Of a stretch of 64,000 bases of DNA, positions 29,207-63,749 are shown in pieces. The stretch is from Okeania sp. KiyG1. GTDB taxonomy: Bacteria; Cyanobacteriota; Cyanobacteriia; Cyanobacteriales; Microcoleaceae. The notes under the pieces are model-generated. The model was not told where the DNA came from. It was given only the letters and a program-made list of their open reading frames with translations, and made no database searches. The position numbers and the translations under genes are program-made. Location: assembly GCF_014132355.1 (NCBI RefSeq), contig NZ_BLZO01000087.1, forward strand, positions 1-64,000, written 5' to 3'. Position 1 is the stretch's first letter; the number at the start of each line of letters is the position of its first letter.

Positions 29207-31942
29207 CTACAAAGCAACAGTATAATCGCTAAGTTGAATATCAAAATTCAGATTATAGTATGGGTCTCCCAAATCCATATAAATTTGCCGTTGGTCTAAT
29301 AGCAACATATAGTCAACCACATCATAATTTCTTTGTCTGTGTTTTTCTGATTGATGATTAATTAAAACACTACGGGGGGTAAAGACTATTCGCTTGCCAT
29401 TTTTCCTCAACTTCAAACACAAATCAACATCTTGATAATCGGAGAAAAAGTGTTCATTAAAACCTCCAACTATTTCAAAATTTTGCCTACTCACCATCAA
29501 ACAATCTCTACTTACAGCAGATACTTCTCTTGCACAAACTAAAGAACCTGCATAACCATCATGGTTAGAGGGAAAACCTCGCATTAGATAATCAACTTTT
29601 CCAGACTTTCCTAATACAATGCCTGCGTGTTCAACAATTCCATCTGGGAAAATTAATAATCCTCCCACAGCCCCAATATCAGATTGTTCGGCGTAATATA
29701 AAATATGTCGTTGCCAATCTTCAGTAACAACTTCCAAATTAGTATTGAGGAAAATAAAATATTCTCCTTGGGCTGTTTTGGCAGCCAGATTATAAGCACG
29801 AGAATAATTAAATTGCCCTGATAGATTTAAAACTTTCACCGCAGAATTTTTGATAATATTTTCTGTTTTTTCCCCACCCACTAAAATCAATTCATTTTTG
29901 GGATAAGTTGAAACAGACAAAAGATTTTTCGACCATTTATCAATATTTTCTGAAAGATTAGGAGCAGCAATAATTAGACTAATCAAAGGATGATTATTTT
30001 TAGGTAAAGGATTAATATTTATCCGATGTTTACCTACCCCTGGTTCTGCTTTTGCTGCTAAACCAATCCTTTGTAAATGAGAATTAACAGCAGCTTGTTG
30101 TACTACTTCTATACCTGCTTTAGCATCGGCATCTCCCGAAATACTTCCTTTAACTTGTCGCCAATGATAAAGGTGTCGAGAAAGATGAGCAATTTTATTA
30201 GTTTGCTCGGAAACTCGTAACATAAACTCATAGTCTTGTACCCCATCAAATTCGCTATTAAAACCACCAGCAGTTAAAGCTAATTCTCGGCGGACACATA
30301 ATAAATGACCGACATACATAACACCACGAAAATATTCAGGAGACCAGTCAGGTTTAAAGAATGGAACGATATAATTTAACCCAGAAAAATCAATTTTATC
30401 TTCATCGGAATAAACCACATCGAATCCTTCTGCCAGTTTATTGAGACTATCTTCTAATGCTGTGGGAGCCAGAGTATCATCATGGTCTAATAAACAAATA
30501 TATTCTCCTGTAGCCATATTTAGAGCTTTATTTGTAGCAGCACTAATTCCACCATTATCTTCTGAAAAGAGAACTTTAATTCTGGGTTCTTTTTCTGCTA
30601 AACCTGCAAGAACATTTCTAATTTCTGCTTGTTTCGAGCCATCATCAACAATACACCATTCCCAGTTAGGGATAGATTGGTTAAGAACACTTAAAACTGT
30701 TTCCACAAACCAATCTAAAGATGAGTTCCAGGTTGGAGTAAGAATACTAATAGAAGGTTTAGAGTAATCTCCTCTTCCTTCTATCAAAGATTCAGAAAAA
30801 TCTCCTCTTCCTTCTTCCTCCTTCCTTCTTCCTTCTATAGAAGATTCAGAAAAATCCCTTCTTCCTTCTTCCTTCTTCCTCCTTCCTTCTACTAAAATAA
30901 TTTCCCAGAATTTATCAACTGTTACTCCGGATAAACCCAATAATTCTTGTTTTTGTTTGGGCGGGGGAGTAGGAAATTTTGACTTTTGAGTAAATTTTTC
31001 TAAAGGTTTAGTCAGAAGTTTTTTTTTAGCCGTAGTTGAAATATCTCGTTCTACAGGAAATAGACTCTTGGCAGGAATATTTTCTTTTTGAGATTTAAAT
31101 CTTTCTAAATCAGCTTTAATTTCTTGAATTTCTGTTTGCGAAAGTTCTAAATCTGCCTGAATTGTTTCCAGCACAGAAGAAGATAATTTTACTTGTTCTA
31201 CTTTTTGATGTGTTGATGATTCTGGAGATAGTAACTCTGGCGATGTAGCAGTAATTGTTTTAGGTTCTAACTCCTGTTTTAGTGATTCTGGAGAAGTTGG
31301 TAATTGAACAGTAGAATTAGGTGGTTGTATTGTTTGAATTTGTTTGTCTGAGTGGGATTCATTTTTTTGTTTTGGTAAAGACAAAACTAACTGTTTTAAA
31401 ATCACAGTACCTTCACCTTTTTGGAAAAAGGGAGTCAAACTAACATCAGAATCTTGGCACTGCTCTAACTGTTGTGAATTTAAAGGTATCGAAAGTTCAA
31501 ACCTAGCATTTTCCGCATCCAAATCAGAATTAGACTTTTTCACATCCGGACTAGGAATCCCTTTTTTAAGTTGAAAATTCTCTATTTCCACCCCACCGAG
31601 AATCACCTTCATATTTTCTAGAAAACCTGAGTTAACTCCAGCCACCCAACCTTTAATAGAAAGTTGATTTTCCTGAGAAATTTCCACCTGTTCCACATAT
31701 CCAGTTGTAGGTAGTAAAGGTATAGTTTTTGATATTTGCTCTGGTTCTATTTCCTGTTGAATTTGTGGTTTTGGTAAAGACAAAACTAACTGTTTTAAAA
31801 TCACAGTACCTTCACCTTTTTGGAAAAAGGGAGTCAAACTAACATCAGAATCTTGGCACTGCTCTAACTGTTGTGAATTTAAAGGTATCGAAAGTTCAAA
31901 CCTAGCATTTTCCGCATCCAAATCAGAATTAGACTTTTTCAC
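29207..31942 (-). CDS. GWV/PSPD-domain protein with two GT2 glycosyltransferase domains (3' part of a split gene)
   Basis: The 911-residue frame starts with GTG inside a repeat unit. Residues 1-190 hold the end of array unit 5 and all of unit 6 (GWVAGVNSGF...GIPSPDVKK). A polar linker with a coiled-coil stretch (SVLETIQADLELSQTEIQEI) and a heptamer-encoded part (EGRRKKEEGRRDFSES) follows. The first GT2 domain is SISILTPTWNSSLDWFVETV with DDGS and LLDHDDTLAP. The second is PLISLIIAAPN...FIFLNTNLEVVTEDW...CLKLRKNGKRI. GT2 enzymes build polysaccharide chains on the cytoplasmic side. Upstream parts of the same gene lie at 31939-33138 and 33135-35279, separated by two one-base deletions. Confidence 0.85.
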   Translation of the reverse strand: MKKSNSDLDAENARFELSIPLNSQQLEQCQDSDVSLTPFFQKGEGTVILKQLVLSLPKPQIQQEIEPEQISKTIPLLPTTGYVEQVEISQENQLSIKGWVAGVNSGFLENMKVILGGVEIENFQLKKGIPSPDVKKSNSDLDAENARFELSIPLNSQQLEQCQDSDVSLTPFFQKGEGTVILKQLVLSLPKQKNESHSDKQIQTIQPPNSTVQLPTSPESLKQELEPKTITATSPELLSPESSTHQKVEQVKLSSSVLETIQADLELSQTEIQEIKADLERFKSQKENIPAKSLFPVERDISTTAKKKLLTKPLEKFTQKSKFPTPPPKQKQELLGLSGVTVDKFWEIILVEGRRKKEEGRRDFSESSIEGRRKEEEGRGDFSESLIEGRGDYSKPSISILTPTWNSSLDWFVETVLSVLNQSIPNWEWCIVDDGSKQAEIRNVLAGLAEKEPRIKVLFSEDNGGISAATNKALNMATGEYICLLDHDDTLAPTALEDSLNKLAEGFDVVYSDEDKIDFSGLNYIVPFFKPDWSPEYFRGVMYVGHLLCVRRELALTAGGFNSEFDGVQDYEFMLRVSEQTNKIAHLSRHLYHWRQVKGSISGDADAKAGIEVVQQAAVNSHLQRIGLAAKAEPGVGKHRININPLPKNNHPLISLIIAAPNLSENIDKWSKNLLSVSTYPKNELILVGGEKTENIIKNSAVKVLNLSGQFNYSRAYNLAAKTAQGEYFIFLNTNLEVVTEDWQRHILYYAEQSDIGAVGGLLIFPDGIVEHAGIVLGKSGKVDYLMRGFPSNHDGYAGSLVCAREVSAVSRDCLMVSRQNFEIVGGFNEHFFSDYQDVDLCLKLRKNGKRIVFTPRSVLINHQSEKHRQRNYDVVDYMLLLDQRQIYMDLGDPYYNLNFDIQLSDYTVAL

Positions 31943-33722
31943 ATCCGGACTAGGAATCCCTTTTTAAGTTGAAAATTCTGTATTTCCACCCCACCGAGAA
32001 TCACCTTCATATTTTCTAGAAAACCTGAATTAACCGCAGCCACCCAACCTTTAATAGAAAGTTGATTTTCCTGAGAAATTTTCACCTGTTCCACATATCC
32101 AGTTGTAGGTAGTAAAGGTATAGTTTTTGATATTTGCTCTGGTTCTATTTCCTGTTGAATTTGTGGTTTTGGTAAAGACAAAACTAACTGTTTTAAAATC
32201 ACAGTACCTTCACCTTTTTGGAAAAAGGGAGTCAAACTAACATCAGAATCTTGGCACTGCTCTAACTGTTGTGAATTTAAAGGTATCGAAAGTTCAAACC
32301 TAGCATTTTCCGCATCCAAATCAGAATTAGACTTTTTCACATCCGGACTAGGAATCCCTTTTTTAAGTTGAAAATTCTGTATTTCCACCCCACCGAGAAT
32401 CACCTTCATATTTTCTAGAAAACCTGAGTTAACTCCAGCCACCCAACCTTTAATAGAAAGTTGATTTTCCTGAGAAATTTCCACCTGTTCCACATATCCA
32501 GTTGTAGGTAGTAAAGGTATAGTTTTTGATATTTGCTCTGGTTCTATTTCCTGTTGAATTTGTGGTTTTGGTAAAGACAAAACTAACTGTTTTAAAATCA
32601 CAGTACCTTCACCTTTTTGGAAAAAGGGAGTCAAACTAACATCAGAATCTTGGCACTGCTCTAACTGTTGTGAATTTAAAGGTATCGAAAGTTCAAACCT
32701 AGCATTTTCCGCATCCAAATCAGAATTAGACTTTTTCACATCCGGACTAGGAATCCCTTTTTTAAGTTGAAAATTCTGTATTTCCACCCCACCCAGAATC
32801 ACCTTCATATTTTCTAGAAAACCTGAGTTAACTCCAGCCACCCAACCTTTAATAGAAAGTTGATTTTCCTGAGAAATTTCCACCTGTTCCACATATCCAG
32901 TTGTAGGTAGTAAAGGTATAGTTTTTGATATTTGCTCTGGTTCTATTTCCTGTTGAATTTGTGGTTTTGGTAAAGACAAAACTAACTGTTTTAAAATCAC
33001 AGTACCTTCACCTTTTTGGAAAAAGGGAGTCAAACTAACATCAGAATCTTGGCACTGCTCTAACTGTTGTAAATTTAAAGGTATCGAAAGTTCAAACCTA
33101 GCATTTTCCGCATCCAAATCAGAATTAGACTTTTTCACATCCGGACTAGGAATCCCTTTTTAAGTTGAAAATTCTGTATTTCCACCCCACCCAGAATCAC
33201 CTTCATATTTTCTAGAAAACCTGAATTAACCGCAGCCACCCAACCTTTAATAGAAAGTTGATTTTCCTGAGAAATTTCCACCTGTTCCACATATCCAGTT
33301 GTAGGTAGTAAAGGTATAGTTTTTGATATTTGCTCTGGTTCTATTTCCTGTTGAATTTGTGGTTTTGGTAAAGACAAAACTAACTGTTTTAAAATCACAG
33401 TACCTTCACCTTTTTGGAAAAAGGGAGTCAAACTAACATCAGAATCTTGGCACTGCTCTAACTGTTGTAAATTTAAAGGTATCGAAAGTTCAAACCTAGC
33501 ATTTTCCGCATCCAAATCAGAATTAGACTTTTTCACATCCGGACTAGGAATCCCTTTTTTAAGTTGAAAATTCTGTATTTCCACCCCACCCAGAATCACC
33601 TTCATATTTTCTAGAAAACCTGAATTAACCGCAGCCACCCAACCTTTAATAGAAAGTTGATTTTCCTGAGAAATTTTCACCTGTTCCACATATCCAGTTG
33701 TAGGTAGTAAAGGTGTAGTTTC
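31376..33722 (-). repeat. Tandem array of six 399-bp coding units
   Basis: The words TCTCAGGAAAATCAACTT and GGTTGGGTGGC recur at 399-bp spacing. Spacings measured at the GAAA before TTTCCACCTG are 398, 399, 399, 398 and 399 bp. Units differ by only a few bases (GTTAACTCC or ATTAACCGC). Two units (at about 31961 and 33157) have five instead of six T in CCCTTTTTTAAG (plus strand), and each such deletion ends a reading frame. Confidence 0.95.
31939..33138 (-). CDS. GWV/PSPD tandem-repeat segment (middle part of a split gene)
   Basis: This 399-residue frame consists only of 133-residue repeat units: the end of unit 2, units 3 and 4, and the front of unit 5. Each unit has VEQVEISQENQLSIKGWVA, NSGFLENMKVILGGVEI, LKKGIPSPDVKKSNSDL, ARFELSIPLN, DVSLTPFFQKGEGTVIL and a linker PQIQQEIEPEQISKTIPLLP. 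It starts with GTG and ends KKGFLVRM at a run of five A where other units have six. The stop and the next start overlap as GTGA at both ends, so coupled translation is possible. Otherwise it is one gene with 29207-35279. Confidence 0.7.
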   Translation of the reverse strand: MKKSNSDLDAENARFELSIPLNLQQLEQCQDSDVSLTPFFQKGEGTVILKQLVLSLPKPQIQQEIEPEQISKTIPLLPTTGYVEQVEISQENQLSIKGWVAGVNSGFLENMKVILGGVEIQNFQLKKGIPSPDVKKSNSDLDAENARFELSIPLNSQQLEQCQDSDVSLTPFFQKGEGTVILKQLVLSLPKPQIQQEIEPEQISKTIPLLPTTGYVEQVEISQENQLSIKGWVAGVNSGFLENMKVILGGVEIQNFQLKKGIPSPDVKKSNSDLDAENARFELSIPLNSQQLEQCQDSDVSLTPFFQKGEGTVILKQLVLSLPKPQIQQEIEPEQISKTIPLLPTTGYVEQVKISQENQLSIKGWVAAVNSGFLENMKVILGGVEIQNFQLKKGFLVRM

Positions 33723-35279
33723 TGATATTTGCTCTTCCCCTATTCCTTCTTCCCTGTTCTGATTATTTCGCAGAATAACTATATCTTGATTACCGCGAAT
33801 CCCACCAGGAAGATAATCAATTATTTCAAATTCCGATGCCCACCTATTTCTGACATAATCTTCGGTTTGATAAGTAGTTTTGTACCAGTCAGGAAAAATC
33901 TTCTTTTCTGCAACAGAGGGCACAAATACTAATCCATCTGTTTCCAACTTAGTTGCCAATTCATAAGCTTCTTTTGGAGTATTGGGGCGACGAGTGGTAA
34001 TCAAAACAATGCCTTCCGGCTTAGTAATTCTGCGTAACTCTTGCAGCCATTGCAACTGCATTTCTTCATTAATATGAGTGAATACTGAGATGAGATAAAC
34101 CAAGTCAAATTGATTATCTTCGTATTCTATAGGTGGTAAAGCTTGGTTGACTCTAAACTTGGCAAATTTTAGATTTTCCTGACACCAAGATATTGCCTCT
34201 GCATCAATATCTGTACCGTATAAGGAAGTAGAGTTACTTAACAGAGAATTCCAGATAATTACCCGCCCACAACCGCAGCCAAAATCTAAGACTGAATCAA
34301 ATTCACTAAACTCTTTGCCAATTTTCTTCAGAACTGCTTTTAAGTCTCTACTTATTTCCCAACCTGCTTGTAAAAATCCACTAATTTTTGAATCTCCATG
34401 CACTCTAACTACCAGAGGTGTTGGTGGCACAGGTATCGATTTTCCATCAGACAGAATTACATGGGAATCAACAATTTTGTGGTTAACAGGTTTATTCCCC
34501 CCACCCACAACAGAAATTACTTTAACCATAACAACACCTTTACCATCATTAAATAAAGGAGTTAAGGCAACAACAGAATCATCAAACTGTTCGATTTGAG
34601 GTTGAGAAATAGGAATTATTACCTGGAAACGAGCAACTTCAGCATTATCAAGTTTGGGAAAAGCCTTCTTGACATCTGGACTCGGAAGACCAAGAGAATA
34701 TTCAAATTCTGTGATGGCTTGACCTGCGATAGAAATTTCAAACCCTTCTACAGGGCCAGAGTTGAGAGAAGCTACCCAACCAGAAAGGCGTAACTGTTGA
34801 TTTTGAATAATTGCTTGGTCAAAATTGCCAACACTCCGTAAAGTATTAGTTGTTTGAGAAATTTTATCTGGCAATAGACTTAGCGATCGCTGTTGTTGAC
34901 TTTCATCAGATTGGGATTTGTTTGCTGGAGTTGTTGTGCCTAGATGATGAAGTATAACTTTCCCCTTACCCTCAGAGAAAATAGGAGTAAGGGCAATTCC
35001 CGACTTTTGATATTGCTCAATTTGTTGGGAGTTGAGAGGGATAACCAGACGAAAGCGAGCTTTAGCACTATTACCCAGGTGAGGATGAATTTGATTAACA
35101 TCTGGACTAGGGATACCCAAGGTCTGTTCAAAATCCTCTATTTGTTGGGTATCGATAGTTACATTAAAATTTTGCACTGGATTAGGATTAACTGAGGCTA
35201 TCCAACCATATACCTCTAGTTTTTGATTTTCTAGCCTTACTAATTCGAGATTTCCCTTAGTTTCTATTGGTTTATTCAT
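33135..35279 (-). CDS. GWV/PSPD-domain methyltransferase (5' part of a split gene)
   Basis: This 714-residue frame starts MNKPIETKGNLELVRL. Residues 8-118 are one GWV/PSPD domain (EVYGWIASVNPNPVQNFNV, LGIPSPDVNQ, RFRLVIPLNSQQIEQ). Residues 148-262 are a second (LSGWVASLNSGPVEGFEI, LGLPSPDVKKAF). A class I methyltransferase follows at about 300-500: VLDFGCGCGRVI, LYGTDIDAEAISW and FDLVYLISVFTHI. Array unit 1 and half of unit 2 end the frame at KKGFLVRM. The intact gene would be about 2020 residues: two domains, methyltransferase, six repeats, two GT2 domains. The substrate is unknown. The upstream region is 530 bp without a gene. Confidence 0.85.
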   Translation of the reverse strand: MNKPIETKGNLELVRLENQKLEVYGWIASVNPNPVQNFNVTIDTQQIEDFEQTLGIPSPDVNQIHPHLGNSAKARFRLVIPLNSQQIEQYQKSGIALTPIFSEGKGKVILHHLGTTTPANKSQSDESQQQRSLSLLPDKISQTTNTLRSVGNFDQAIIQNQQLRLSGWVASLNSGPVEGFEISIAGQAITEFEYSLGLPSPDVKKAFPKLDNAEVARFQVIIPISQPQIEQFDDSVVALTPLFNDGKGVVMVKVISVVGGGNKPVNHKIVDSHVILSDGKSIPVPPTPLVVRVHGDSKISGFLQAGWEISRDLKAVLKKIGKEFSEFDSVLDFGCGCGRVIIWNSLLSNSTSLYGTDIDAEAISWCQENLKFAKFRVNQALPPIEYEDNQFDLVYLISVFTHINEEMQLQWLQELRRITKPEGIVLITTRRPNTPKEAYELATKLETDGLVFVPSVAEKKIFPDWYKTTYQTEDYVRNRWASEFEIIDYLPGGIRGNQDIVILRNNQNREEGIGEEQISETTPLLPTTGYVEQVKISQENQLSIKGWVAAVNSGFLENMKVILGGVEIQNFQLKKGIPSPDVKKSNSDLDAENARFELSIPLNLQQLEQCQDSDVSLTPFFQKGEGTVILKQLVLSLPKPQIQQEIEPEQISKTIPLLPTTGYVEQVEISQENQLSIKGWVAAVNSGFLENMKVILGGVEIQNFQLKKGFLVRM

Positions 35280-35816: not shown

Positions 35817-37152
35817 ATTCAACAACACTAGATTTCCCATAACCAAATTCCTGTAAAGCTTCAGCAAAAACCTGCTGACATAATTCTTGAAGTTCAGGGT
35901 TTAGGTCAGATTTCCATCTACCGATGGAAGCTTCAGCACTGGTAGTAGTTCGATGTTTTTCCATTTTATTGGTATCTCCCGATGCAGTTTCGAGCATAGT
36001 ACCAATAGTTGTCTGGGAATTTTCCAAACCCAAATATTCCAAAAGCTGACTCAGAGTCTCTACTGGGGATAAAATCAAATCTTCGTAGCGCAGTAAGAAA
36101 GCTGTTTGCGAACATTCTTTCCATCTTTGTACCAACATTCTTGCTTGAAAATTTCCGGTTTTGCGAATAATCTCTTCATCAGTTTTAATCTGTTGTTGAC
36201 CTGCCATATCGTATCCGCGTTTAGCATTAAAAGCAATGACCGAGCAGACTACATCTCGGAAATCTCGCACTAAAATTATTTCTCGTCCTTCGGGATAAAG
36301 TTCTAGGAAGAGTGTTTTAATCGGGTTGAGCATATACTTCTCTGCAAAATATATAGGTTGCCCATCATTGGAAAAATTTTTACCTTGGCTACTTCCGAGA
36401 GCTTGGTAAAGTCCATCAATACTTTGCTGGCAAAAGGCTGCTAGTTTTTCTGGGTAATCATTTCCATACCAATCAAGGGTTTCGGGTGAATTGACGTTTT
36501 TATGATAAAAAGGATTATGCCCAATCAAATTTAGATTGTTCTCGAAACCAACTATAGGAGTAGAATGTTGAGGATTTGCTGGTTGTGAAAGCACTTGCAA
36601 CATTTGCATCCAATACTGTGCAGCTCTAACTTCATAGGGGTAATGTTGAGACACAATCAACCGTGGATGTTGGGATAGGAGTTGCATTAACCAAGTTGTG
36701 CCTGTGCGTCCGACACAAGTTACTATTAATGGCTGTAATTTTGGTTGGTAGCCAGAACGCAAAGGCTGATGTCTAAATCGTATTTTTGCGATGGGAATAT
36801 GAGTTTGGTCTTTGAGAACTGCTTGTAAATTTAATTCATCTTCTGTTGATAATCCAATGATGCTAATAGAGGTGGCAAAACCACAGTTTTTCGCTTTTGG
36901 ATTTTGTGGATAAATTGTAGCTAATTCTGGTCGCTGATTTCCAATCGGAATTTTCCGTAACATTCTCTTGTTGTTAATTATTTTGATAGCTACGGCTGGA
37001 TATTTCTTGCCTAATACCCAACCTGAAATATCAATTGTGTATGTATTTTTGTGTTCTCCTGTTTCAGGAATGTCTATTGCACAGCCTAATAATTCTGCCA
37101 AATTAGAATATTTTTCTACTTCTAATATTTCTACTTTTGCTATTGCGACCAT
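35812..37152 (-). CDS. Sulfotransferase with an N-terminal GWV-like domain
   Basis: Residues about 20-130 form a beta-rich domain with the GW core (YTIDISGWVLGKKYPAVAIK, RPELATIYPQNPKAKNCGFA). The sulfotransferase domain starts at about 140: the 5'-phosphosulfate loop is LIVTCVGRTGTTWLMQLLSQ, and the 3'-phosphate motif is EIILVRDFRDVVCSVIAFNA near residue 300. Later motifs are FLLRYEDLILSPVETLSQLL and SIGRWKSDL. It would move sulfate from PAPS to a sugar hydroxyl, probably a polysaccharide, given its neighbours. At 446 residues it is intact. MITE-3 lies at the very 3' end. Confidence 0.9.
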   Translation of the reverse strand: MVAIAKVEILEVEKYSNLAELLGCAIDIPETGEHKNTYTIDISGWVLGKKYPAVAIKIINNKRMLRKIPIGNQRPELATIYPQNPKAKNCGFATSISIIGLSTEDELNLQAVLKDQTHIPIAKIRFRHQPLRSGYQPKLQPLIVTCVGRTGTTWLMQLLSQHPRLIVSQHYPYEVRAAQYWMQMLQVLSQPANPQHSTPIVGFENNLNLIGHNPFYHKNVNSPETLDWYGNDYPEKLAAFCQQSIDGLYQALGSSQGKNFSNDGQPIYFAEKYMLNPIKTLFLELYPEGREIILVRDFRDVVCSVIAFNAKRGYDMAGQQQIKTDEEIIRKTGNFQARMLVQRWKECSQTAFLLRYEDLILSPVETLSQLLEYLGLENSQTTIGTMLETASGDTNKMEKHRTTTSAEASIGRWKSDLNPELQELCQQVFAEALQEFGYGKSSVVEY

Positions 37153-37300: not shown

Positions 37301-37927
37301 TCAATTTCTGAGTCTTAAGGCTTGTTGATATAATTCTATATCTAACCTATTCAGAGATGCTAACTTATCCAGTATTTTTTGGTCAGACAATATTTCTGGC
37401 AATTTTTCTTGATAACCAGGATACTTATTTGTTTGTTTACTACTTATCTGAAAGTCTTGCCAATTCAATTTTTCTTTAAGTTTTTTCAAATCCTCAGAAA
37501 AATATTCTTTGATGCCAATAAAATAAAAATTTGTGATTGGTTTTTCACTGGTAGCTTTATACATTAAATTCCGCATTTCTGGCATTTCGGCAAATTCGAC
37601 AATACTTAAATTTTGTTCGATTACTAATTTATGATGGGGGTCATTAAATGGATTATTTCCCAAGGGTAAACCTTTCCAATAGAAGTATTGAGAAATTAAA
37701 CGTTCTACAGGATTTCTCAGCCAAATTATCCTTTTAGCACCAGGATATTTTCCTTCATATTTAATAGTCCGAAAATGACCGTGAATTACCCTCACTTTGG
37801 CTCCGACTTCTGGATATCCTGGTTGATTATCAACACAAACTCCCTCGGGACCATACACTTGTAATAATATATCTTTAAAAGTTGTACCTGCTGTTTTAGG
37901 TACATGAATTGAAATAATATCTACCAT
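37301..37927 (-). CDS. Sulfotransferase family 2-type protein
   Basis: I chose the ATG at 37927 (MVDIISIHVPKTAGTTFKDI). The open frame continues upstream into a tnpB fragment but that part is unrelated. The phosphosulfate-binding loop is HVPKTAGTTF, and the second motif is RIIWLRNPVERLISQYFYWK. The C-terminal part FYFIGIKEYFSEDLKKLKEK and LASLNRLDIELYQQAL matches the neighbour at 41748-42476, indicating duplication. The length is about 208 residues, usual for the group. It probably sulfates a glycan with PAPS. The tnpB remnant replaces its native promoter region. Confidence 0.85.
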   Translation of the reverse strand: MVDIISIHVPKTAGTTFKDILLQVYGPEGVCVDNQPGYPEVGAKVRVIHGHFRTIKYEGKYPGAKRIIWLRNPVERLISQYFYWKGLPLGNNPFNDPHHKLVIEQNLSIVEFAEMPEMRNLMYKATSEKPITNFYFIGIKEYFSEDLKKLKEKLNWQDFQISSKQTNKYPGYQEKLPEILSDQKILDKLASLNRLDIELYQQALRLRN

Positions 37928-38429
37928 GAATTTATAATAATCCCATCTTGAATTTAGATGTTGAATCAACTTTATATTGCCTATTTTTGGCAAGTTGATC
38001 TTGTTTTCTTGAATGCAGTCTTGCTTGATTTGAGGATAAGTAAAACTACGATAACGACCTTTTCCCTTAAACCTTGGTTTCCCTAATTTCTGTCCATTTT
38101 TGTCTGCTTTCAACCATCTATCAAAGGCAAGTTTTACCCGTTTTATGCAGTCGTGGCATACCTGAGAATGAATTAGCTTATATTCTGGAAATTTGTCTTT
38201 GGTATTGACTAAATCTTTTTTTTGAGAGTAATAATCTGGATGATCTCTTAGTTGAGGAATTGGCATCTACCTTGGGGCAAGCATTAACCGGACAGCGATT
38301 TTCTGACCACCATGAGAATCTTTCACCTAACCGATAGTTGTACTGCCGACGCAACAATTCCAACCACATTTCTATTGTGGCTAACTGTTTTTTATTGGGC
38401 CTTAATTTATATTGGTAGGCAGTCCGCAT
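37928..38429 (-). pseudogene. tnpB N-terminal fragment fused in frame to a sulfotransferase
   Basis: MRTAYQYKLRPNKKQLATIE and RRQYNYRLGERFSWWSENRC, then after a one-base shift near 38265 MPIPQLRDHPDYYSQKKDLV, FPEYKLIHSQVCHDCIKRVK, KPRFKGKGRYRSFTYPQIKQ and KINLPKIGNIKLIQHLNSRW. The fragment stops before RuvC-I and runs without a stop into MVDIISIHVPKTAG. The left-end region is at 38430-38607. It is close to the fragment at 27677-28195. Confidence 0.8.
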
Positions 38430-40587: not shown

Positions 40588-41781
40588 TTAATTTAACTCA
40601 TTTTTTTCTATAACTAAGAAATCTTCGCAGACAAAAGCTCGACGTCCACACCAAAAACCGAATGTTTTATTTACCACAATAAACCCTTGCTGCTCAATCC
40701 AATTTAACAATAAAGATTCTTGAAACCCTATAGCTTCTTCTGGCAGATCGGGATTTTTAGTAAAACTTTCCCCAAGTTGATAAATAATATTTTGGGAACT
40801 CTTACCTTTAGCAATTAAATGTTGTGATTCTGAATTGAGCAAAAAGCAAGTCAAAAAACATCTAGCACCCCTCCTTAAAACTCGATAAATTTCATCAAGA
40901 TAATGTCTAACTTCAGCAGCTTGTAGATGAGTAAATAGAGAAATTACACAGACAAAATCAAAACTTTCATTCTGATATGGAAAACAGAAATCTGTAGCCA
41001 ATATCTTGCCAGTAGGATTATAAATAGAGTTATAAATATCTAAATATTTAAAATTGAAGTTAGGTCTAGCAGGAGTAATATTTTTTGTAGCCCAAGAAAC
41101 TAACTTATCTGAAACATCAAAACCTTCATAGCAAGTTGTTTGGTTAAGATAATAAGTCAAAGAATAAGCAATCCGACCTACTCCACATCCCACATCAAAA
41201 ATTTGGTCTGTAGGTTTGAGACCTGCGGTTTGGATAAAAAAGCCCAGAAATTTCAAAGCTGTACGAATAAATACTCCTTTATCTCCACTACCAACCCACT
41301 GAATTAACTCTTGATCGGGAATTGGTAGACCAGGATTAAACAATTTGAATAAGATAGTCCCTTCACGACCTTTAAATATAGGAATTAAAACTATTAAACA
41401 ATCCCGACATCTTTGGATTTGTTGTGGAAATAGAGGAATTTTTAGAGAAAATCTAGCAGCTTCAGCTTTGTCTAGATGAGAGCATATCTTCTTTATATCT
41501 GGGCTGGGTAAACCACAAATTATTTCAAAGTTATCTATTTTTATGCCTCCAACTATCACTTGAAAATTTTCAACAACACCAGAATAAAGGGATGCTACCC
41601 ATCCTTGAATTTTTAATTCTTCACTATTAATTATGACTTTATCAATATTGCCTTTTGAGACTAACTGCCCAGAGTCATTCGCTATGTTTGTTATCTTTAA
41701 AGGCGAGCCCTCGGGGTTAAGTTTTAGTTGCTGTATTTTTTTTAATTCTAGTTGTTTTTGTTTTTGGTCATCACCATACAA
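40588..41781 (-). CDS. GWV/PSPD-domain SAM methyltransferase
   Basis: This 397-residue protein has the GWV/PSPD domain at about 45-160: LKIQGWVASLYSGVVENFQV, IICGLPSPDIKKICSHLDKA and RFSLKIPLFPQQI. The methyltransferase (about 190-390) has IFDVGCGVGRIAYSLTYYL, YEGFDVSDKLVSWA, FDFVCVISLFTHL and VLRRGARCFLTCF. The layout is the same as 62667-63749. The N-terminal 33 residues overlap the 3' end of the upstream sulfotransferase (34 bp), so the two are translationally coupled and probably modify the same glycan. The acceptor is unknown. It is intact. Confidence 0.85.
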   Translation of the reverse strand: MYGDDQKQKQLELKKIQQLKLNPEGSPLKITNIANDSGQLVSKGNIDKVIINSEELKIQGWVASLYSGVVENFQVIVGGIKIDNFEIICGLPSPDIKKICSHLDKAEAARFSLKIPLFPQQIQRCRDCLIVLIPIFKGREGTILFKLFNPGLPIPDQELIQWVGSGDKGVFIRTALKFLGFFIQTAGLKPTDQIFDVGCGVGRIAYSLTYYLNQTTCYEGFDVSDKLVSWATKNITPARPNFNFKYLDIYNSIYNPTGKILATDFCFPYQNESFDFVCVISLFTHLQAAEVRHYLDEIYRVLRRGARCFLTCFLLNSESQHLIAKGKSSQNIIYQLGESFTKNPDLPEEAIGFQESLLLNWIEQQGFIVVNKTFGFWCGRRAFVCEDFLVIEKNELN

Positions 41782-42476
41782 TAAACCAGATTTTTTAGTC
41801 TTTTTTCTCTTAAATTTAAGGCTTCTTGATATATTTCTATATCCTCCTGATTTAGCTTTGCTAACTGAGAAATTATTGGTTTATTTTTGAGTAATTCTTG
41901 CAGACTATCTTGATATTCTGCTGATATATTTTTATTTTTATAGCTAACAGCAATTTCCGGCCATTCTAACATTTCTTTTAATTCTTTGATATCGGTTTCA
42001 AAGAATTCTTGAATGCCGACAAAGTAAAAGTCTGTTAATTTAGTTTCTTTGAGATACTTACGTTTAATCTGATTCTGATTTTCTGGTATTTCTGCAAATT
42101 CAATCAAATCTATTTTTTTTTCTTGTTGCAAATACTCCTGCATCTTAGTGACATAATGTGTCTGACTAGCATTCTTTAAAAAATAGTACCGAGAAAATAA
42201 TGCAATTATGGGATTTCTTAACCAGATAATTTGGCGAGCCTCTGGATAATATTCATCGTATTTATTTGCTGGAAAATGACCGTGAATTACTTTCGTTTGA
42301 GAATGAAGAGTTTTTAGGGCTTGATAACGTCTTTTATTAGGTATTGGATAATCTAGAATAACATTTTTATGACCATAAACTTGTAATAAAATCTTTTTAA
42401 ATGTTGACCCTGCTGTTTTGGGTACATGAATAGAAATTATTTCTATTTTTGAATCTACCCCATTTATATGTGTCAT
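41748..42476 (-). CDS. Sulfotransferase family 2-type protein
   Basis: This 242-residue protein starts MTHINGVDSKIEIISIHVPK. The PAPS loop is HVPKTAGSTFKKILLQVYGH, and the second motif is QIIWLRNPIIALFSRYYFLK. The C-terminal part FYFVGIQEFFETDIKELKEM and LAKLNQEDIEIYQEALNL is shared with 37301-37927, so the two are paralogs. Its stop lies inside the next gene (overlap 34 bp). It is likely to sulfate a polysaccharide. The upstream 500 bp hold MITE-1 rather than a gene. Confidence 0.85.
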   Translation of the reverse strand: MTHINGVDSKIEIISIHVPKTAGSTFKKILLQVYGHKNVILDYPIPNKRRYQALKTLHSQTKVIHGHFPANKYDEYYPEARQIIWLRNPIIALFSRYYFLKNASQTHYVTKMQEYLQQEKKIDLIEFAEIPENQNQIKRKYLKETKLTDFYFVGIQEFFETDIKELKEMLEWPEIAVSYKNKNISAEYQDSLQELLKNKPIISQLAKLNQEDIEIYQEALNLREKRLKNLVYCMVMTKNKNN

Positions 42477-42987: not shown

Positions 42988-43322
42988 TCAGTTTTTCTGT
43001 GTCGCTTCGGTCACTTGCCTCTTAATTTTTTGCAGTTTGTTTTGATAATGGTTTAGTGATTTTTTCATTTGATCTAATTGATATTTATATTCTTCTATTG
43101 ACTCCCGTTCTGGATTTTCTAGAGGGTCGGAAGTAGAGTTTTTTTGTAAGATTAGTAAATCAGGTTTTGTAAAGGAAATTCTACCACACCAAGAACCATA
43201 ATATTTTGAGATGACATTCAAATCTTGCTCTATAATCAACTTCTGTAGATAAGATTCTTGATAACCAATAGTTACTTCTGGTTTCTTAGGATTACTGGTA
43301 AAACAATCTTTTAATTGATGTA
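42988..43322 (-). pseudogene. C-terminal piece of the GT92/methyltransferase gene
   Basis: HQLKDCFTSNPKKPEVTIGY, QESYLQKLIIEQDLNVISKY and YGSWCGRISF match the C-termini of the methyltransferases at 40588 and 62667. A coiled-coil tail (YKYQLDQMKKSLNHYQNKLQ) follows. It is out of frame with 43311-45887 because of one missing base near 43320. Confidence 0.75.
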
Positions 43323-45887
43323 CAAATTTTTAGAACTTTTTCCTTCAGCAGTCAAATTTTCTGATTCCAAATTAAGCAAAAAACAACTAAATAAACATTT
43401 ACCACCTGGTTTAAGCACCCGACTAATTTCTCTCAAATATTGCTTTACCCCATCAGCTTGCAGATTAGTAAAAATATTCCTCAGACAAACAACATCAAAA
43501 CTTTCATTAGGATAGGGAAAAATAAATTCTGCTACTGGTACATTTCCTTTGGGATAATAAATAGGATGATATAGGTCAACGAAACGGAATTTAAAGTTAG
43601 GTTTGCCAGTAGAAATTTCTTGCTGAAGCCACTTTAGAGGTTTGTCTACCATGTCAAAACCTTCATAACGTCCAGGAGATTTGAGGTAGGAGGTCAAAGC
43701 ATAAGCAATGTTACCTAATCCACAACCAATATCCAGGATATGGTCTGTGGGTTTGAGGTTTACTCTTTGAATTAAGTAACTTAGCCATTTAAACCCAGTG
43801 GCAATAAATTCCTGACTACTTATCCCACCAAAATTCTTGGTGTATTTTGTGCTAGGAATGGGTATTGAAGGGTTTTTAACTGCTAGTATTAAACCACCTT
43901 CACGATGATTGAACAAAGGAGTTAAAGCTATTAGTGAATCTTGATATTCTTGCTGTTTTTGCTCTATAGGTAATTTTAAGCGGAATTTAGCCAGGGAGGC
44001 ATTGTCTAGGTCTGGATATGATTTTTTCACCCCAGGACTTGGTAAACCTAGGGTGAGGTCGAATTTGGTAATTTCTTGCCCGGCGATCGCGACTTTGAAG
44101 CCATCTACGGGGCCATAGTTAATTGAGGCCACCCAACCAACTAGAAGTAAGTTTTGGTTTTGAATTAGAGATTTATCTAGATTTCCTTGGGTTGGTATAA
44201 CTTCTTTTGATGGGGGTGAAGTTGGAATTAGTGGGTTTAATAAATTTGCAGTTTGAGAAGTTTTTTGTAGCTGCGGTAGCGAAGCATTTACTTTTTCTAT
44301 TGCTTTTTTCAGCTTGGGAATAAACCGTTGAATAGTTAAATCTTTTACTTCGTTAAAAATATGTTCTTTAGATTCAAAATTCGACCAATCTTTCTTGTTA
44401 TTCTTGTTTGCTTTCCCACCCATCATTTTGGGTTTGCTTTCTTCTTTTGAGCGAGTATGGTAATGATTAATTCTTAATTTTTGTACTGAATGTTTTGGGG
44501 TAATTGCTCTATTTACTGGTTGTTTATTTTCTGTTACTGCTAAACCATTTAGGTAAATGAAGCGGTGAGGATTGACAGGTTTAACAGTTTGTTCTGGATG
44601 AACAATACATTTTACAGTTTTGTTGGGGCTATAATTATTTTTACTACGTTTAATAAAGTTTTCTATTTGCAAGCCTTCGGGTTTTGTTTCATGGTTGGAA
44701 TTTCCAAAAATCAACCAGTTTACTGCTAATGCAGGAACGTCAATAAATTCATCTAATATTTCTTTTATATCGTCTGCTTTTGTGGGAAATAAAAATTCAT
44801 CTAAGTCTATAAATGCTATCCATTCAGATTCTTGTTTGTGATTTTCTAGACAATGAGAATAAGCAGAAAGTTGTCCTGGTCTTTGAGGCCAATAACAATA
44901 AATTACTTCACCTGAATTAATATAAGAACTGATAATCTCTTTTGTATTATCTGTACTCTCATTATCGTATAAATAAAATCTTTCTACACCCACTAACTTG
45001 TGAAATTCTAACCATTCCACTAGATAAGGGCTTTCATTTTTGATTATTGCACAGATACTTAATTTACATTTTTCTGTAATCTGAGGATTATCTGAAGTTT
45101 TTGTTAGTGCTGATTTTAGCTGAGGAAGAAAGCGTTGAATAGTTAAATCTTCCACATCATTACGATCGTGCAGTAAAACAAATGATAATTTTCTCTTACT
45201 TTTTACAGTTGCTCTTCCACGTTGAACTTTCTTTTTGGTTTCTTCTTTTGAGCGAGTAAAATAATGATTAATCCTCAATTTACTAACTGAATGTTTCTCG
45301 GAAATTTTACCCAATAAAGGTTCTAGATTTTCTGTTACGGCTACCCCATTATTAATGTATGTAAAATGATGTGGACTAAGACAACTAATAGTTTGGTCAC
45401 TGCGAACAATTGACTTGAAATTTAAATTAGCTTTAAAATCATTTTTGCCTCTATAAGTATAATTTTCCATTTGTAAACCTTCTGGTTTAGTTTCATGTCC
45501 GGAAGAACCAAAAATTAGCCAATTTACACCTACTGCTGGAGCATCAACAAATTCTTTTAATACCTCTTTTAAATCATTGTCTAGTGTGGGAAATAAAAAC
45601 TCATCTAAATCGATAAAAGCAATCCATTCCGATTCATGTTTATAGTTTTCCAAAAAATCTGTATAAGCTGCCATTTGTTGTCCTACTTTTCCCGGCCAAT
45701 GTTTGAGAATAACTTCTCCTGTATCTAGATAAGGACGAATAATATCTCTGGTATTGTCGGTACTATTATTGTCATATAAGTAAAACCTTTCTACTCCTAC
45801 TAACTTGTGAAATTCCAACCATTCTCTGAGATATGAGCCCTCATTTTTCATAATTGCACAGATACTTAGGGTACATTTTTGCCTCAT
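43311..45887 (-). CDS. Double GT92-type glycosyltransferase with GWV/PSPD domain and methyltransferase
   Basis: The 858-residue frame has two copies of a GT92/DUF23-like domain: residues 5-270 (LSICAIMKNEGSYLREWLEF, RFYLYDNNSTDNTRDIIRP, IAFIDLDEFLFPT) and 275-545 (LSICAIIKNESPYLVEWLEF, IAFIDLDEFLFPT). The DLDE motif matches a metal site of GT-A enzymes. The GWV/PSPD domain follows at 575-690 (LVGWVASINYGPVDGFKVAI, LGLPSPGVKKSYPDLDNA). A methyltransferase starts at about 720 (ILDIGCGLGNIAYALTSYL). The frame ends early (KNLYIN) by a one-base loss; the rest is at 42988-43322. The glycosyl transfer domains look intact. Confidence 0.85.
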   Translation of the reverse strand: MRQKCTLSICAIMKNEGSYLREWLEFHKLVGVERFYLYDNNSTDNTRDIIRPYLDTGEVILKHWPGKVGQQMAAYTDFLENYKHESEWIAFIDLDEFLFPTLDNDLKEVLKEFVDAPAVGVNWLIFGSSGHETKPEGLQMENYTYRGKNDFKANLNFKSIVRSDQTISCLSPHHFTYINNGVAVTENLEPLLGKISEKHSVSKLRINHYFTRSKEETKKKVQRGRATVKSKRKLSFVLLHDRNDVEDLTIQRFLPQLKSALTKTSDNPQITEKCKLSICAIIKNESPYLVEWLEFHKLVGVERFYLYDNESTDNTKEIISSYINSGEVIYCYWPQRPGQLSAYSHCLENHKQESEWIAFIDLDEFLFPTKADDIKEILDEFIDVPALAVNWLIFGNSNHETKPEGLQIENFIKRSKNNYSPNKTVKCIVHPEQTVKPVNPHRFIYLNGLAVTENKQPVNRAITPKHSVQKLRINHYHTRSKEESKPKMMGGKANKNNKKDWSNFESKEHIFNEVKDLTIQRFIPKLKKAIEKVNASLPQLQKTSQTANLLNPLIPTSPPSKEVIPTQGNLDKSLIQNQNLLLVGWVASINYGPVDGFKVAIAGQEITKFDLTLGLPSPGVKKSYPDLDNASLAKFRLKLPIEQKQQEYQDSLIALTPLFNHREGGLILAVKNPSIPIPSTKYTKNFGGISSQEFIATGFKWLSYLIQRVNLKPTDHILDIGCGLGNIAYALTSYLKSPGRYEGFDMVDKPLKWLQQEISTGKPNFKFRFVDLYHPIYYPKGNVPVAEFIFPYPNESFDVVCLRNIFTNLQADGVKQYLREISRVLKPGGKCLFSCFLLNLESENLTAEGKSSKNLYIN

Positions 45888-52258: not shown

Positions 52259-55200
52259 ATGAAATCCGTGCCTCAAGTAACTCCAGAAACTTCAGCCCAA
52301 TACTTTCAAAAAGCCAACGACGCTATAGAAGCAGGCAAACTAGAAGAAGCCATCCCTCTCTATCGCCAAGCTATAAAACTAAACCCTAACTTCTCTTTGT
52401 ATTACCAAAGTCTGGGAGATGTAGAAGCCCAACTAGGTCATTGGGAACAAGCGACTACTGCCTATAGTCAGGCCATAAAACTTAAACCAAACTCGGCTAT
52501 CTCTCATCATCACCTGGGGGACATTCTGGCTCAACAAGGGAAATTAGAGAAAGCGATCGCCTCCTACTCCCAGGCCATTAATATCAATCCCAACTTTTCA
52601 GAATTTTATAACAGTCTCGGAAAAGCTGTATTCAACAAAGGTGAATTTGACAAAGCCATAACCTACTACCAAAAAGCTATATCCCTGGACTCAGAATCTG
52701 CTATTGCCCACCATAACTTGGGAGAAACTTTTGATAAACAAGGTCAAACTCAGGAAGCTACTAATTACTATCGGAAAGCTATAGAAATAGACCCCAGTTT
52801 CTGGGAATCATACCAAAAATTAGGAATAGCCCTGAGTAAACTAGGAGACCTACATCAAGCTGCCCAAGTTTATTTAAAAGCTAGTCAACTTGTCCCGAAT
52901 TCCGCTAAAATCCATCATCATTGTGGAGAAACTTTATCCAAACTCCAAAGGTGGGATGAGGCCATTGTTGCCTATGGTAAAGCAACCGAACTAAAACCAA
53001 ACTCTGCACCCATTTATCATCAGTTCGGATATGCTCTGGCTCAACTACAAAAATGGCCGGAAGCTATAGCTGCCTACCGCAAAGCGATCGAACTTCAGCC
53101 CAACTCCCCAGAAGTACATCACCATCTGGGATATGCTTTAGCTCAACAGAAAAATTGGTCTGACGCTGTAGTTGCTTACCGCAAAGTCACAGAACTTCAG
53201 CCTAACTCCCCAGAGGTTTATTATCATTTGGGATATGCTCTGGGTAAACTTCAAAAGTGGGAACAAGCGGTGGTCGCTTACCAGAAAGCTGCACAATTAC
53301 AACCCAATTCCCCACAGGTACATTACCAGTTAGGTTGCGCCCTGATAGAATTCAAACAAAATCAAGAGGCAGTGGCCTCTCTCCGTAAAGCTTTAGAACT
53401 TAATCCTAACTTGGCCGAAGCTTATGGGGAATTGGGAATAGCTCTCGGTAATTTGAAGCAGTGGGATGAGGCGATCGCTACTTATCATCGGGCCTTGGAA
53501 CTTAATCCAAATTTAGGGGAAGTTCATGGTTATTTGGGAAAGATATTGGCTTCACAAAAACAGTGGGATGATGCTATTGCTAGTTATCGCCGTGGTCTGG
53601 AAGTTAATCCTAAGTTGCCGGAGGTTTACCAAAATCTGGCTTTAGCTTTGGTGCAGCAACAAAAGTTTGATGATGCTATTACCAATTATCAGCAAGCTAT
53701 TCAAATAGGTATCAATACTGCGGAAATTCACCATCAGTTGGGTCATACTCTCAGCAAACTCAAACGTTGGGATGAGGCTGTGGTTAGTTATGGTCGGGCA
53801 GTTGAGATTAATCCTAAGTCTGCAGCAGTGCATCATATGTTAGGAGAAGCTCTTGCCCAATTAAAACGGTGGGATGAGGCCCTCGCTTCTTTATCTCAAG
53901 CTGCTGAACTGAATCCTAAATCTGCGGATGTTATATACCACAAAGCCGAATTATTGTCAAAATTAGAAAGGTGGGATGAAGCTGTGGCGGCTTATTCAAA
54001 AGCTGTAGAGTTAAGGCCAAACTCGGCAAAGTTTCATTTGCGGTTGGGGGAAGCTTTGGCCCAGAAAACTCCTATGGATGAGGCGATCGCTTGTTACCGT
54101 CGTGCTTTGGAAATAGACCCTCATTTTTCTAAGGCTAAGAAAAAATTAGAAGCTGCTCAAGGAAGAAAAAATTTACTGGAAACGGGCAATTTTACGAACA
54201 TTAATATATTAGGAGAAACTGATTTTGAGGGTTGTTTGGATTATGCGACTCTTGATTATGTTTCTGGTTGGGCGAGACATAAAAATGATTCTGATAAGGT
54301 TGTATTTGTTGATGTTTTTGTTGGTAATAATTTAGTTGGAACGTTAGTAGCGAATAAATATCGTCAAGATTTAGCGGAAGCTTTTGATACTCACGGATAT
54401 CATGCTTTTGCTCAAAAAATTCCTCCTTCTTTACATAGTAATGGGTTAGTTGAAGTTAGTGTCAAGATAACAGAAACAGGTGAACAATTGAAAAATTCTC
54501 CTAAACCATTAGTAGTCGGACCGAAGGGGAAAAAGCATGAGGTTAATCTGAGTTTTGGTCAGGGAGAAATTAATAAACTTATCTATCATTTTCAAGAAGG
54601 AAGAAGGAAGAAGGAAGAAGGAAGTAGTGAAGAATTCAAAAGTCAAAAGTCAAAAGTCAAAAGTGAAGAAGTAAATTTGGAATTCAAAAGTCAAAAGTCA
54701 AAATTCCAAGAAGAATTCAAAAGTCAAAAGTCAAAAGTCAAAAGTGAAGAAGAAGTCAGAAGTAAAGAAGTAAAAAATGGAGAAGGAGTCGGAAGTAGAG
54801 AGTTAGAAGAATTCAGGAGTGAAGAGGAAGTTAGAAGTCAGATATCTCTGGCAAAAGTTCGGACGGAAAAACCAGCAGTAGCAGTAATTATTTTGAGTTT
54901 GAATGGAGCGAAATTATTAAGTGAGTTATTTGCTTCCTTTGAGCTTTATAACAGTTATGAAAATTTGGAATTAGTAGTGGTTGACCACGGATCGACAGAT
55001 AATAGTATTGATGTCTGTATGGAGTGGTTTAAAAAGTTGCCCATAACGGTTATTGCCAGGGGAGAAAATTATTCTTTTTCCAACTCAAATAATGTGGGAG
55101 TGAATGAAACAAAAGCTCCTTTACTGTTATTTATGAATAATGATATTACCCTCTGCCAAGACATAATTCCTCAAATGGTTGAGTTAATTCAACAAGATGA

Positions 55201-62666: not shown

Positions 62667-63749
62667 ATGAAATTTTTAAAACCAACTGACCCTTTACCTA
62701 CTTTGGGTAGATTAGAAAAAACAGCCATTACAAATGGAGTAGTACATTTAGAAGGCTGGGTAGTATCTTTTGATAAGAAGCCATTGGATAGAATCCAAGT
62801 TACTATTGGAGGCCAAGAATTTAGTAATTTGGAAATATCACACAGTCTGCCCTCTCCCGATATCAATAAGGGTTATCCCAACATTCCAGGAACAGACAAA
62901 GCAAGATACATAATTAAAATATCCCTGACTGGGCAGCAACAACAACTGAAAAATTCTTTAGTAGTATTAACTCCCATATACCAAGGGCGACCAGGTGGAA
63001 TAATGCCCAATGTATTAGACCCCTCTATACCTCTTCCCAGTCAAGAATACATCAAATTTGTCGGGGATCATTTCACAGATGTAGCCTTCGACTTTCTCGG
63101 TTATTTTATTCAGAGGGTAGGTTTAGAACCTAACGACAAAGTATTGGACGTTGGTTGTGGTGTGGGCCGTCTTGCTTATTCTTTAGCCTATTATTTAACT
63201 CCCCAAGGTGGATATGCAGGTTTTGATATTGCTGAAAAGTTAATTAAATGGGCAAATTCAGAGATTACTTCCAGATTTCCCAACTTCAACTTTCAGGTAG
63301 TCAACATCTACAATCAAATGTACAACCCAGAGGGAAATGTCAAAACTTTGGATTTTATCTTTCCCCACGAGGATAAAAGTTTCGAGTTGGTGTTTTTGAT
63401 TTCTGTTTTTACTCATTTGCGGGCTAAGGAAGTACGCCATTATCTAGATGAAATTTCCAGAGTATTAAAACCAGGAAGTCGATGTCTGTGTAGTTGTTTT
63501 TTATTGAATCCAGAGTCAGAGTCGGCGATCGCTAAAGGTAGAGGCGCTCATAAGATAGTACATCAACTCGAAGAGTGTTTTACCAGTAATCCTAAAATGC
63601 CAGAAGCAGTTATTGGTTACAAGGAACCCCTACTTTTAGGTTGGATGCGAGAGCGGGGGCTAACTGTGGTGGGTAAATATTACGGTCAGTGGTGTGGACG
63701 AAATAGATTTACCAGTTATCAGGATATATTAGTGTTGCAGAAAAATTAG
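62667..63749 (+). CDS. GWV/PSPD-domain SAM methyltransferase
   Basis: This 360-residue intact protein has the GWV/PSPD domain at 10-118 (LEGWVVSFDKKPLDRIQVTI, HSLPSPDINKGYPNIPGTDK, RYIIKISLTGQQQQLKNSLV, LTPIYQGRPGG). The methyltransferase part has VLDVGCGVGRLAYSLAYYL, YAGFDIAEKLIKWANSEITS, FELVFLISVFTHLRAKEVRH and VLKPGSRCLCSCFLLN. It ends YGQWCGRNRFTSYQDILVLQ, shared with 40588 and 42988. The target is unknown; O-methylation of a sugar is likely in this setting. A second methyltransferase starts 20 bp downstream. Confidence 0.9.
   Translation: MKFLKPTDPLPTLGRLEKTAITNGVVHLEGWVVSFDKKPLDRIQVTIGGQEFSNLEISHSLPSPDINKGYPNIPGTDKARYIIKISLTGQQQQLKNSLVVLTPIYQGRPGGIMPNVLDPSIPLPSQEYIKFVGDHFTDVAFDFLGYFIQRVGLEPNDKVLDVGCGVGRLAYSLAYYLTPQGGYAGFDIAEKLIKWANSEITSRFPNFNFQVVNIYNQMYNPEGNVKTLDFIFPHEDKSFELVFLISVFTHLRAKEVRHYLDEISRVLKPGSRCLCSCFLLNPESESAIAKGRGAHKIVHQLEECFTSNPKMPEAVIGYKEPLLLGWMRERGLTVVGKYYGQWCGRNRFTSYQDILVLQKN

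What the first reader, a model, noticed from the sequence alone, without database searches (positions are those of the whole stretch)
29207..63749. A recurring ~110-residue GWV/PSPD domain joins methyltransferases and glycosyltransferases
Seen: a domain with GWVA-x-x-NSG, a G-[IL]-PSPD-x-K block, RF-x-L-x-IP-x-x-QQ and [AS]LTP-[LI]-F occurs 11 times by my count. There are two copies in 33135-35279, six array units in 31376-33722, and one each in 40588-41781, 43311-45887 and 62667-63749. It precedes methyltransferase or glycosyltransferase domains in each protein. Related GW domains head the sulfotransferase at 35812 and sit in the giant at 52259. I know of no named family with this signature. 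Inference: a glycan-binding or docking module that brings modifying enzymes to one polysaccharide.
Basis: partly seen in the sequence, partly recalled or inferred. Interest (0 to 1): 0.8.

Follow-up and report, generated by a model that had tools for sequence, protein, structure and literature searches.

The report
New Ig-like module in glycan-modifying enzymes
A small, unnamed protein module with an antibody-like fold is built again and again into cyanobacterial enzymes that methylate, sulfate and join sugars, and in this genome one copy has multiplied six-fold; what it binds is not yet known.

Summary
Eleven copies of one ~115-residue domain ('PSPD domain', my label) align into one profile; two of six array copies are split by a one-base-short A-run. 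No Pfam or NCBIfam model searched describes it, and no solved structure matches by sequence. AlphaFold2 (pLDDT 86) gives an Ig-like beta-sandwich. Profile comparison makes it a divergent branch of a wider, also unnamed 'GW/RPDV' domain (95.8%, E 6.9e-9; controls at most 2.4%), the kind heading the sulfotransferase at 35812. The branches differ by a reciprocal arginine swap.

Of 69 PSPD ORFs read outside the window, 66 carry a methyltransferase; two others are cut by assembly ends and one has it in the next ORF. The basic unit is PSPD-methyltransferase. In the window's family it is also joined to sulfotransferases, GT92 and GT2 enzymes, up to 2,145 aa. Genome G634 holds the window's gene set intact (63-89% identity) with ONE array unit where the window has six, so the ORFs at 29207-35279 are one gene with an amplified module and two frame breaks (sequencing error or recent).

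Best reading: a non-catalytic accessory module on methyltransferase and sulfotransferase domains that positions glycan acceptors or spaces modules. Glycan binding is untested.

The parts
34926..35267 (-). PSPD domain copy 1 (first of the megaenzyme)
34512..34841 (-). PSPD domain copy 2; groups with the copy before the same methyltransferase in G011/G022
33840..34379 (-). class I methyltransferase domain (my label MTw33)
31369..33735 (-). tandem array: 399-bp unit x 5.9, six PSPD copies (33360-33707, 32962-33308 broken, 32563-32910, 32164-32511, 31766-32112 broken, 31370-31714)
   Evidence: one unit only in L234
30176..30775 (-). GT2 glycosyltransferase domain a
29210..29995 (-). GT2 glycosyltransferase domain b
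36745..37092 (-). related GW/RPDV domain at the head of the sulfotransferase ORF 35812-37152
35833..36738 (-). sulfotransferase domain (Sulfotransfer_3)
37307..37933 (-). Sulfotransfer_2 domain, separate small ORF in L234 (87.6% identity)
41748..42476 (-). Sulfotransfer_2 half of a sulfotransferase-PSPD-methyltransferase gene that is one ORF in relatives
41317..41664 (-). PSPD domain of ORF 40588-41781
40618..41280 (-). methyltransferase domain following it
44484..45878 (-). two GT92 domains (one in L234)
43854..44198 (-). PSPD domain of ORF 43311-45887 (modelled)
43018..43817 (-). methyltransferase domain; frame changes near 43329
62694..63038 (+). PSPD domain of the stand-alone PSPD-methyltransferase ORF 62667-63749
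63069..63707 (+). methyltransferase domain of the same ORF
54206..54523 (+). GW-like domain in the TPR-glycosyltransferase giant 52259-58024 (distant)

Best explanation
The domain is a ~115-residue Ig-like beta-sandwich, a divergent branch of a wider unnamed GW/RPDV domain. It works as a non-catalytic accessory module fixed just before a class I methyltransferase (and before a sulfotransferase in the large proteins). Its likely job is to hold the glycan acceptor, or the next enzyme module, in reach of the active site, so that methylation, sulfation and glycosyl transfer are done on one substrate by one multi-enzyme polypeptide. In this genome one such unit, lying between the methyltransferase and the two GT2 domains, has been tandemly amplified from one to six copies, which lengthens or multiplies that linker. 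Shown: the family, predicted fold, partners, distribution in the genomes searched, relation to the GW domain, and six copies against one in relatives. Inferred: that it is non-catalytic, that it positions the acceptor, and that the product is a sulfated, methylated glycan.
For: One profile. Fold at pLDDT 86; PSPD-methyltransferase pair at pLDDT 92, pTM 0.91, which suggests a fixed relative placement. Of 69 PSPD ORFs read outside the window 66 carry a methyltransferase; two of the other three are cut by a contig end or a run of N, and in L161 a 147-aa PSPD ORF is followed at once by a separate methyltransferase ORF (one search counted 63 ORFs, one of which, L053 605 aa, is a GW protein and was removed; one search added 7). 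The gap from PSPD to the next domain is 2-17 residues for 48 'MT', 4-6 for 9 'MTb' and 7-25 for 12 sulfotransferase cases. Methyltransferases of the same family elsewhere lack the domain: 1 of 80 loci (Planktothrix) has it, so it is an added module. G634 has the same genes intact with one array unit. Precedent: TarS C1/C2, Ig-like modules on a glycosyltransferase that trimerise it, are proposed to bind the polymer, and whose removal lowers processivity (PMC5156392, passages seen).
Confidence: 0.55

Rival explanations
1. A true carbohydrate-binding module (lectin-like) specific for the nascent or finished polysaccharide; the six-fold array raises avidity.
For: Found with methyltransferases, sulfotransferases and glycosyltransferases; Ig-like folds are used by starch-binding domains (PMC5156392, passages); CD22 Ig domains in complex with sialosides are among the structural neighbours.
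Against: No CBM family match in Pfam for 32 copies; conserved aromatics limited to W22, F46, F72 among the positions counted; the CD22 rows are tied with many antibody domains, and the CD22 range matched (140-237) is only one of its three Ig domains.
Confidence: 0.3
2. A spacer or oligomerisation module without ligand: it sets distance between catalytic modules or trimerises the enzyme, as TarS C1/C2 do.
For: Occurs between catalytic domains in the large proteins; array copy number is six against one and, independently, another unit was duplicated in G001 at 507-bp spacing, 93-94% identity; one of 32 copies touches Pfam TarS_C1 at E 0.085.
Against: The commonest form has a single copy at the N terminus of a ~360-aa protein, where nothing needs spacing; the TarS_C1 hit is not significant; the two GT2 domains at the C terminus have no PSPD between them.
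Confidence: 0.3
3. The array is a decaying gene: unequal crossing-over in a gene already broken by frame shifts, with no functional meaning.
For: Four frame breaks in the cluster, near 31.96, 33.15, 41.79 and 43.33 kb; insertion-sequence ORFs and fragments in many places of the window.
Against: The array breaks lie in an A-run and the other two in stretches with A/T runs (exact places not determined); identity to G634 stays high on both sides (74.0 and 67.1% at 41.79 kb; 63.2 and 74.0% at 43.33 kb); this assembly is 92% complete where five congeners are 96-99%, as indel errors would give. Not decided without reads.
Confidence: 0.2
4. The similarity to the GW/RPDV domain is chance and the PSPD domain is a separate Ig-like family.
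For: Direct profile hits are weak (E about 1e-3 to 1e-7 per genome) and the aligned part is 62-86 of 116 positions.
Against: hhalign 95.8%, E 6.9e-9; reversed profile 1.5% and 20 column-shuffled profiles at most 2.4%; both directions of genome search meet; motifs align GW-GW, SPDV-RPDV, RF-GF.
Confidence: 0.05

Closest known systems
GW/RPDV domain of cyanobacterial sulfotransferases, GT and methyltransferase proteins (unnamed; 35812 N-terminus)
   Same: Homologous by profile comparison; same kinds of partner enzymes; GW and xPDV motifs.
   Different: PSPD branch has Ser instead of Arg before PD (99 of 100) and Arg/Lys instead of Gly before F/Y (99 of 100); GW has R and G in 28 of 29. GW profile: 22 of 386 cyanobacterial genomes; strong PSPD: 6 of 386.
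TarS C1/C2 (Pfam TarS_C1), wall teichoic acid beta-glycosyltransferase
   Same: Ig-like accessory modules on a glycosyltransferase; TarS truncation lowers processivity (PMC5156392, passages).
   Different: C-terminal and tandem in TarS; PSPD mostly N-terminal to a methyltransferase. Only 1 of 32 copies meets TarS_C1, at E 0.085.
Synechan (xss) sulfated exopolysaccharide cluster of Synechocystis 6803
   Same: Sulfotransferases together with glycosyltransferases in a cyanobacterium (PMC8205485, passages).
   Different: Separate genes plus Wzx/Wzy; here fused multi-enzyme proteins with methyltransferases; no Wzx/Wzy match among 39 ORFs of the window, its contig and G005 flanks scanned with Pfam, which is not all ORFs there.
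wps-1 cluster of Actinoplanes missouriensis
   Same: Two sulfotransferases and a methyltransferase in one exopolysaccharide cluster (PMC13390465, passages).
   Different: Encoded by separate genes; no such linking module in the passages seen.

Membership tests
Ig-like beta-sandwich fold | two-sheet sandwich of 7-9 strands, structural match to Ig-like domains | tested here: met
GW/RPDV domain family (35812 kind) | profile-level similarity over the core | tested here: met
   (95.8%, E 6.9e-9), controls
GW/RPDV domain family (35812 kind) | Arg before P-D-V and Gly before F | tested here: not met
   PSPD: S/R 94, S/K 4, R/R 1, S/V 1 of 100 copies; so it is a separate branch
TarS_C1 (PF18674) | significant Pfam match | tested here: not met
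   1 of 32 copies at E 0.085, no other at E<=1
TarS-type trimerisation module | self-association and effect on processivity | not testable with these tools
   needs protein
Carbohydrate-binding module (any CBM) | sequence family match | tested here: not met
   no CBM model among Pfam hits of 32 copies at E<=1; one CBM_4_9_1 hit of the repetitive ORF 31939 at E 0.054 is not believed; CAZy/dbCAN was not available
Carbohydrate-binding module (any CBM) | measured glycan binding | not testable with these tools
   needs protein
Carbohydrate-binding module (any CBM) | structural neighbours that are CBMs | tested here: inconclusive
   generic Ig domains fill the 50 rows; one search lists an acarbose hydrolase (TM 0.52) whose matched part was not identified

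The most novel reading that the evidence does not exclude
PSPD and GW domains are one superfamily of Ig-like acceptor-holding modules that cyanobacteria use to wire methyltransferases, sulfotransferases and glycosyltransferases into a glycan-decorating assembly line. A single arginine, supplied from either of two backbone positions (RPDV..GF or SPDV..RF, with one genome holding both), forms the ligand or docking site. Copy number of the module is tuned by tandem amplification, as in this genome.
Probability: 0.25. Interest if true: 0.75.

Novelty: new variant of a known kind. Interest (0 to 1): 0.5.

Why it matters
It names and bounds an undescribed domain family that marks enzymes of cyanobacterial glycan decoration, a field where sulfation and methylation genes are hard to assign. 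Single proteins that combine sulfotransferase, methyltransferase and two glycosyltransferases, joined by one repeated module, would be an unusual multi-enzyme format for glycans. Six copies against one in an otherwise matching relative gives a natural pair for testing what linker copy number does. The arginine swap gives a precise residue to test.

Tried and rejected
Rejected: that the domain is a named family. Pfam on full proteins and on 32 copies, NCBIfam on 8 window proteins and PDB sequences gave only insignificant, scattered or composition-type hits over it. The repetitive ORF 31939 hit many unrelated families (Sde2 at E 3.8e-6, just above its cut-off; Zonadhesin; acylphosphatase; others), each with 0 stretches passing on their own; these were discarded. 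The comparison 'PSPD vs MT A5' was meant as a control but A5 contains PSPD rows, so it is not one and is not used.

Led nowhere: viral structure library (none at E<=0.001); PDB sequence search with the GW profile and the giant's domain (designed beta-trefoil hits up to E 0.0015 with 0 stretches, not believed). No distribution search outside the cyanobacterial phylum was made (one search was an error). PHROGs, PADLOC, metagenome and viral contigs were not searched. That no description is in print rests on five full-text searches of open-access papers by enzyme and organism words, of which I saw listings with abstract starts; subscription journals are not held. No CBM appears among the rows.

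Rows dropped before counts: domain hits above E 1e-15, then 2 of 68 (under 100 aa or with a stop); 14 of 29 GW loci in the first try (wrong strand, recovered), then 1 of 30 (L183). One search printed only tblastn pieces over 55% identity. One search counted 63 PSPD ORFs; L053 605 aa is a GW protein and was removed by hand. One search added L161, L212-L216 and L218 (7 ORFs); L219 there repeats L233.
Full report
WHAT IS THERE. The window is bases 1-64000 of a 92,526-base contig in an 11-Mb genome. The genome shares its family grouping (f1) with genus g3, whose copies fall in the domain tree with the named Planktothrix paucivesiculata locus L064 (family Microcoleaceae), so a cyanobacterium of that family is the likely source. 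Six distinct copies align over 117 columns at 60% mean column identity; G5, G21-W22, P53-S54-P55, A70 and P95 are among the 11 invariant columns. The array is a 399-bp unit repeated 5.9 times at 98% matches. Two of six units, numbers 2 and 5, are 398 bp, one base short in an A-run, which splits the reading frame into ORFs 33135-35279, 31939-33138 and 29207-31942.

ONE GENE, NOT THREE. In genome G634 (L234) one 1,337-aa ORF has the order PSPD-PSPD-methyltransferase-PSPD-GT2-GT2, colinear with window 35279-29210 at 68-69% identity. Its neighbours match too: GW-sulfotransferase (79%), small sulfotransferase (88%), sulfotransferase-PSPD-methyltransferase (67-74%), GT92-PSPD-methyltransferase (63-82%), and stand-alone PSPD-methyltransferase in L235 (89%). 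L234 has one array unit and no tandem repeat of score 100 or more, where the window has six; G011 and G022 also have a single copy grouping with the array unit, though that fork's support is 82. So the array is best read as a local one-to-six amplification; that the assembly counts the units rightly was not testable. The window also has two GT92 domains where L234 has one. In G001, of the window's genus, a different PSPD unit was duplicated independently (300-nt copies 93-94% alike, 507 bp apart; that assembly has a run of N beside it).

FRAME BREAKS. Besides the two array breaks, frames change near 41,787 and 43,329, in stretches with A/T runs; the exact places were not determined. Identity to G634 stays high on both sides (74.0 and 67.1%; 63.2 and 74.0%). 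The genome's completeness is 92.4% against 96-99% in five congeners. Sequencing error is therefore likely, but a true recent break is not excluded; reads are needed.

RELATION TO THE GW DOMAIN. A separate set grown from the 35812 N-terminus compared with the PSPD profile gave 95.8%, E 6.9e-9 over 62 columns. A reversed profile gave 1.5% and 20 column-shuffled ones at most 2.4%. Genome searches meet from both sides at E below 1e-4. The register puts RPDV on SPDV and GF on RF. Among 100 PSPD copies the pair of positions 54/71 reads S/R in 94, S/K in 4, R/R in 1 (genome G031) and S/V in 1; among 29 GW copies R/G in 28 and T/G in 1. The sequences are related, so these are not independent events. 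A basic residue has thus moved from one position to the other, with one genome holding both. That it marks a common site is inference; no coordinates were available to measure distance. The giant's domain at 52259 belongs with GW (71%) rather than PSPD (3.7%).

PARTNERS AND DISTRIBUTION. Outside the window 69 PSPD ORFs were read, from the 40 other genomes with strong matches and from L064; 66 carry a methyltransferase. Of the other three, two are cut by a contig end or N-run and one (L161, G011) is a 147-aa ORF followed at once by a separate methyltransferase ORF. Architectures: PSPD-MT alone (357-392 aa; one 561-aa ORF has extra N-terminal sequence, one of 301 aa lacks its start); sulfotransferase-PSPD-MT; GT92-PSPD-MT, with GT61-MT-GW before it in L044 and as GW-GT92-GW-sulfotransferase-PSPD-MT in L049; and PSPD-sulfotransferase-PSPD-(PSPD/MT)-PSPD-MT-GT2-GT2 up to 2,145 aa. 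Strong matches occur in 6 of 386 genomes drawn from the phylum (12 at E<=1e-3, six of them weak and GW-like) and in 41 of 389 of the order, in five families (42 at E<=1e-6, one of them GW-like). Of the 41, 14 have three or more matches and these 14 are all in the window's family. The wider GW profile matches 22 of 386. In the tree of 66 copies the relatives' groups mostly follow place in the protein, so the multi-domain layout predates the species that share it; but columns are few, 21 of 62 forks are open, and three window copies sit on long branches. Methyltransferases of the same family in other phyla lack the domain (1 of 80 loci has it).

HOW IT LIKELY WORKS. Shown: an added, conserved module right before methyltransferase and sulfotransferase domains. 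Inferred: it holds the acceptor or spaces the modules. TarS is the nearest worked precedent known to me: Ig-like C1/C2 modules form a trimer, are proposed to bind the polymer, and a construct without them is less processive (PMC5156392; passages seen). Sulfotransferases in cyanobacteria lie mostly in extracellular polysaccharide clusters (PMC8205485; passages seen), which makes a sulfated glycan the likely product here; O-methylation by these methyltransferases is inference. Against: stand-alone PSPD-MT genes lie among seemingly unrelated genes in four loci listed, conserved aromatics are few, and no polysaccharide exporter is among the 39 ORFs of the window, its contig and the G005 flanks scanned with Pfam.

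VERDICT. Observation confirmed; the claim of a new family is supported for the libraries searched; the glycan-binding claim is open. New variant of a known kind: an Ig-like accessory module on glycan enzymes, with a new family, a defined arginine swap and a one-to-six module amplification.

Noticed in passing
58532-61671 (+) with 59349-60389 (-): A gene with a heparinase II/III-like C-terminal part (60757-61671) appears interrupted by an IS605-type OrfB (TnpB) ORF on the other strand; G005 (L197 7492-10866) shows the same layout, which suggests one old insertion. The part before the insert has no Pfam match.
   Followed up: partly
37301-38266 (-): The ORF begins with a stretch like the OrfB-type ORF 27677-28195, running in frame into a sulfotransferase; in L234 the sulfotransferase ORF is 244 aa and only its residues 35-243 match the window.
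   Followed up: partly
30773-30897, 54594-54801, 56095-56587, 58074-58383: Seven-base tandem repeats, several inside coding linkers of the GT2 megaenzyme and the TPR giant; repeats also fill linkers of relatives (L042, L043, L050, L052).
   Followed up: no
43311-45887 (-): Two GT92 domains in tandem where L234 has one, a second internal duplication in the same cluster.
   Followed up: partly
L044:10143-14624 (G003): A 1,493-aa fusion GT61-methyltransferase-GW-GT92-PSPD-methyltransferase; in most sister loci read the first parts are not in this ORF.
   Followed up: no
own genome, 31 places: 31 Sulfotransfer_3 matches, several in pairs on the same contigs and some of them pieces of one gene: a sulfotransferase-rich genome.
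   Followed up: no
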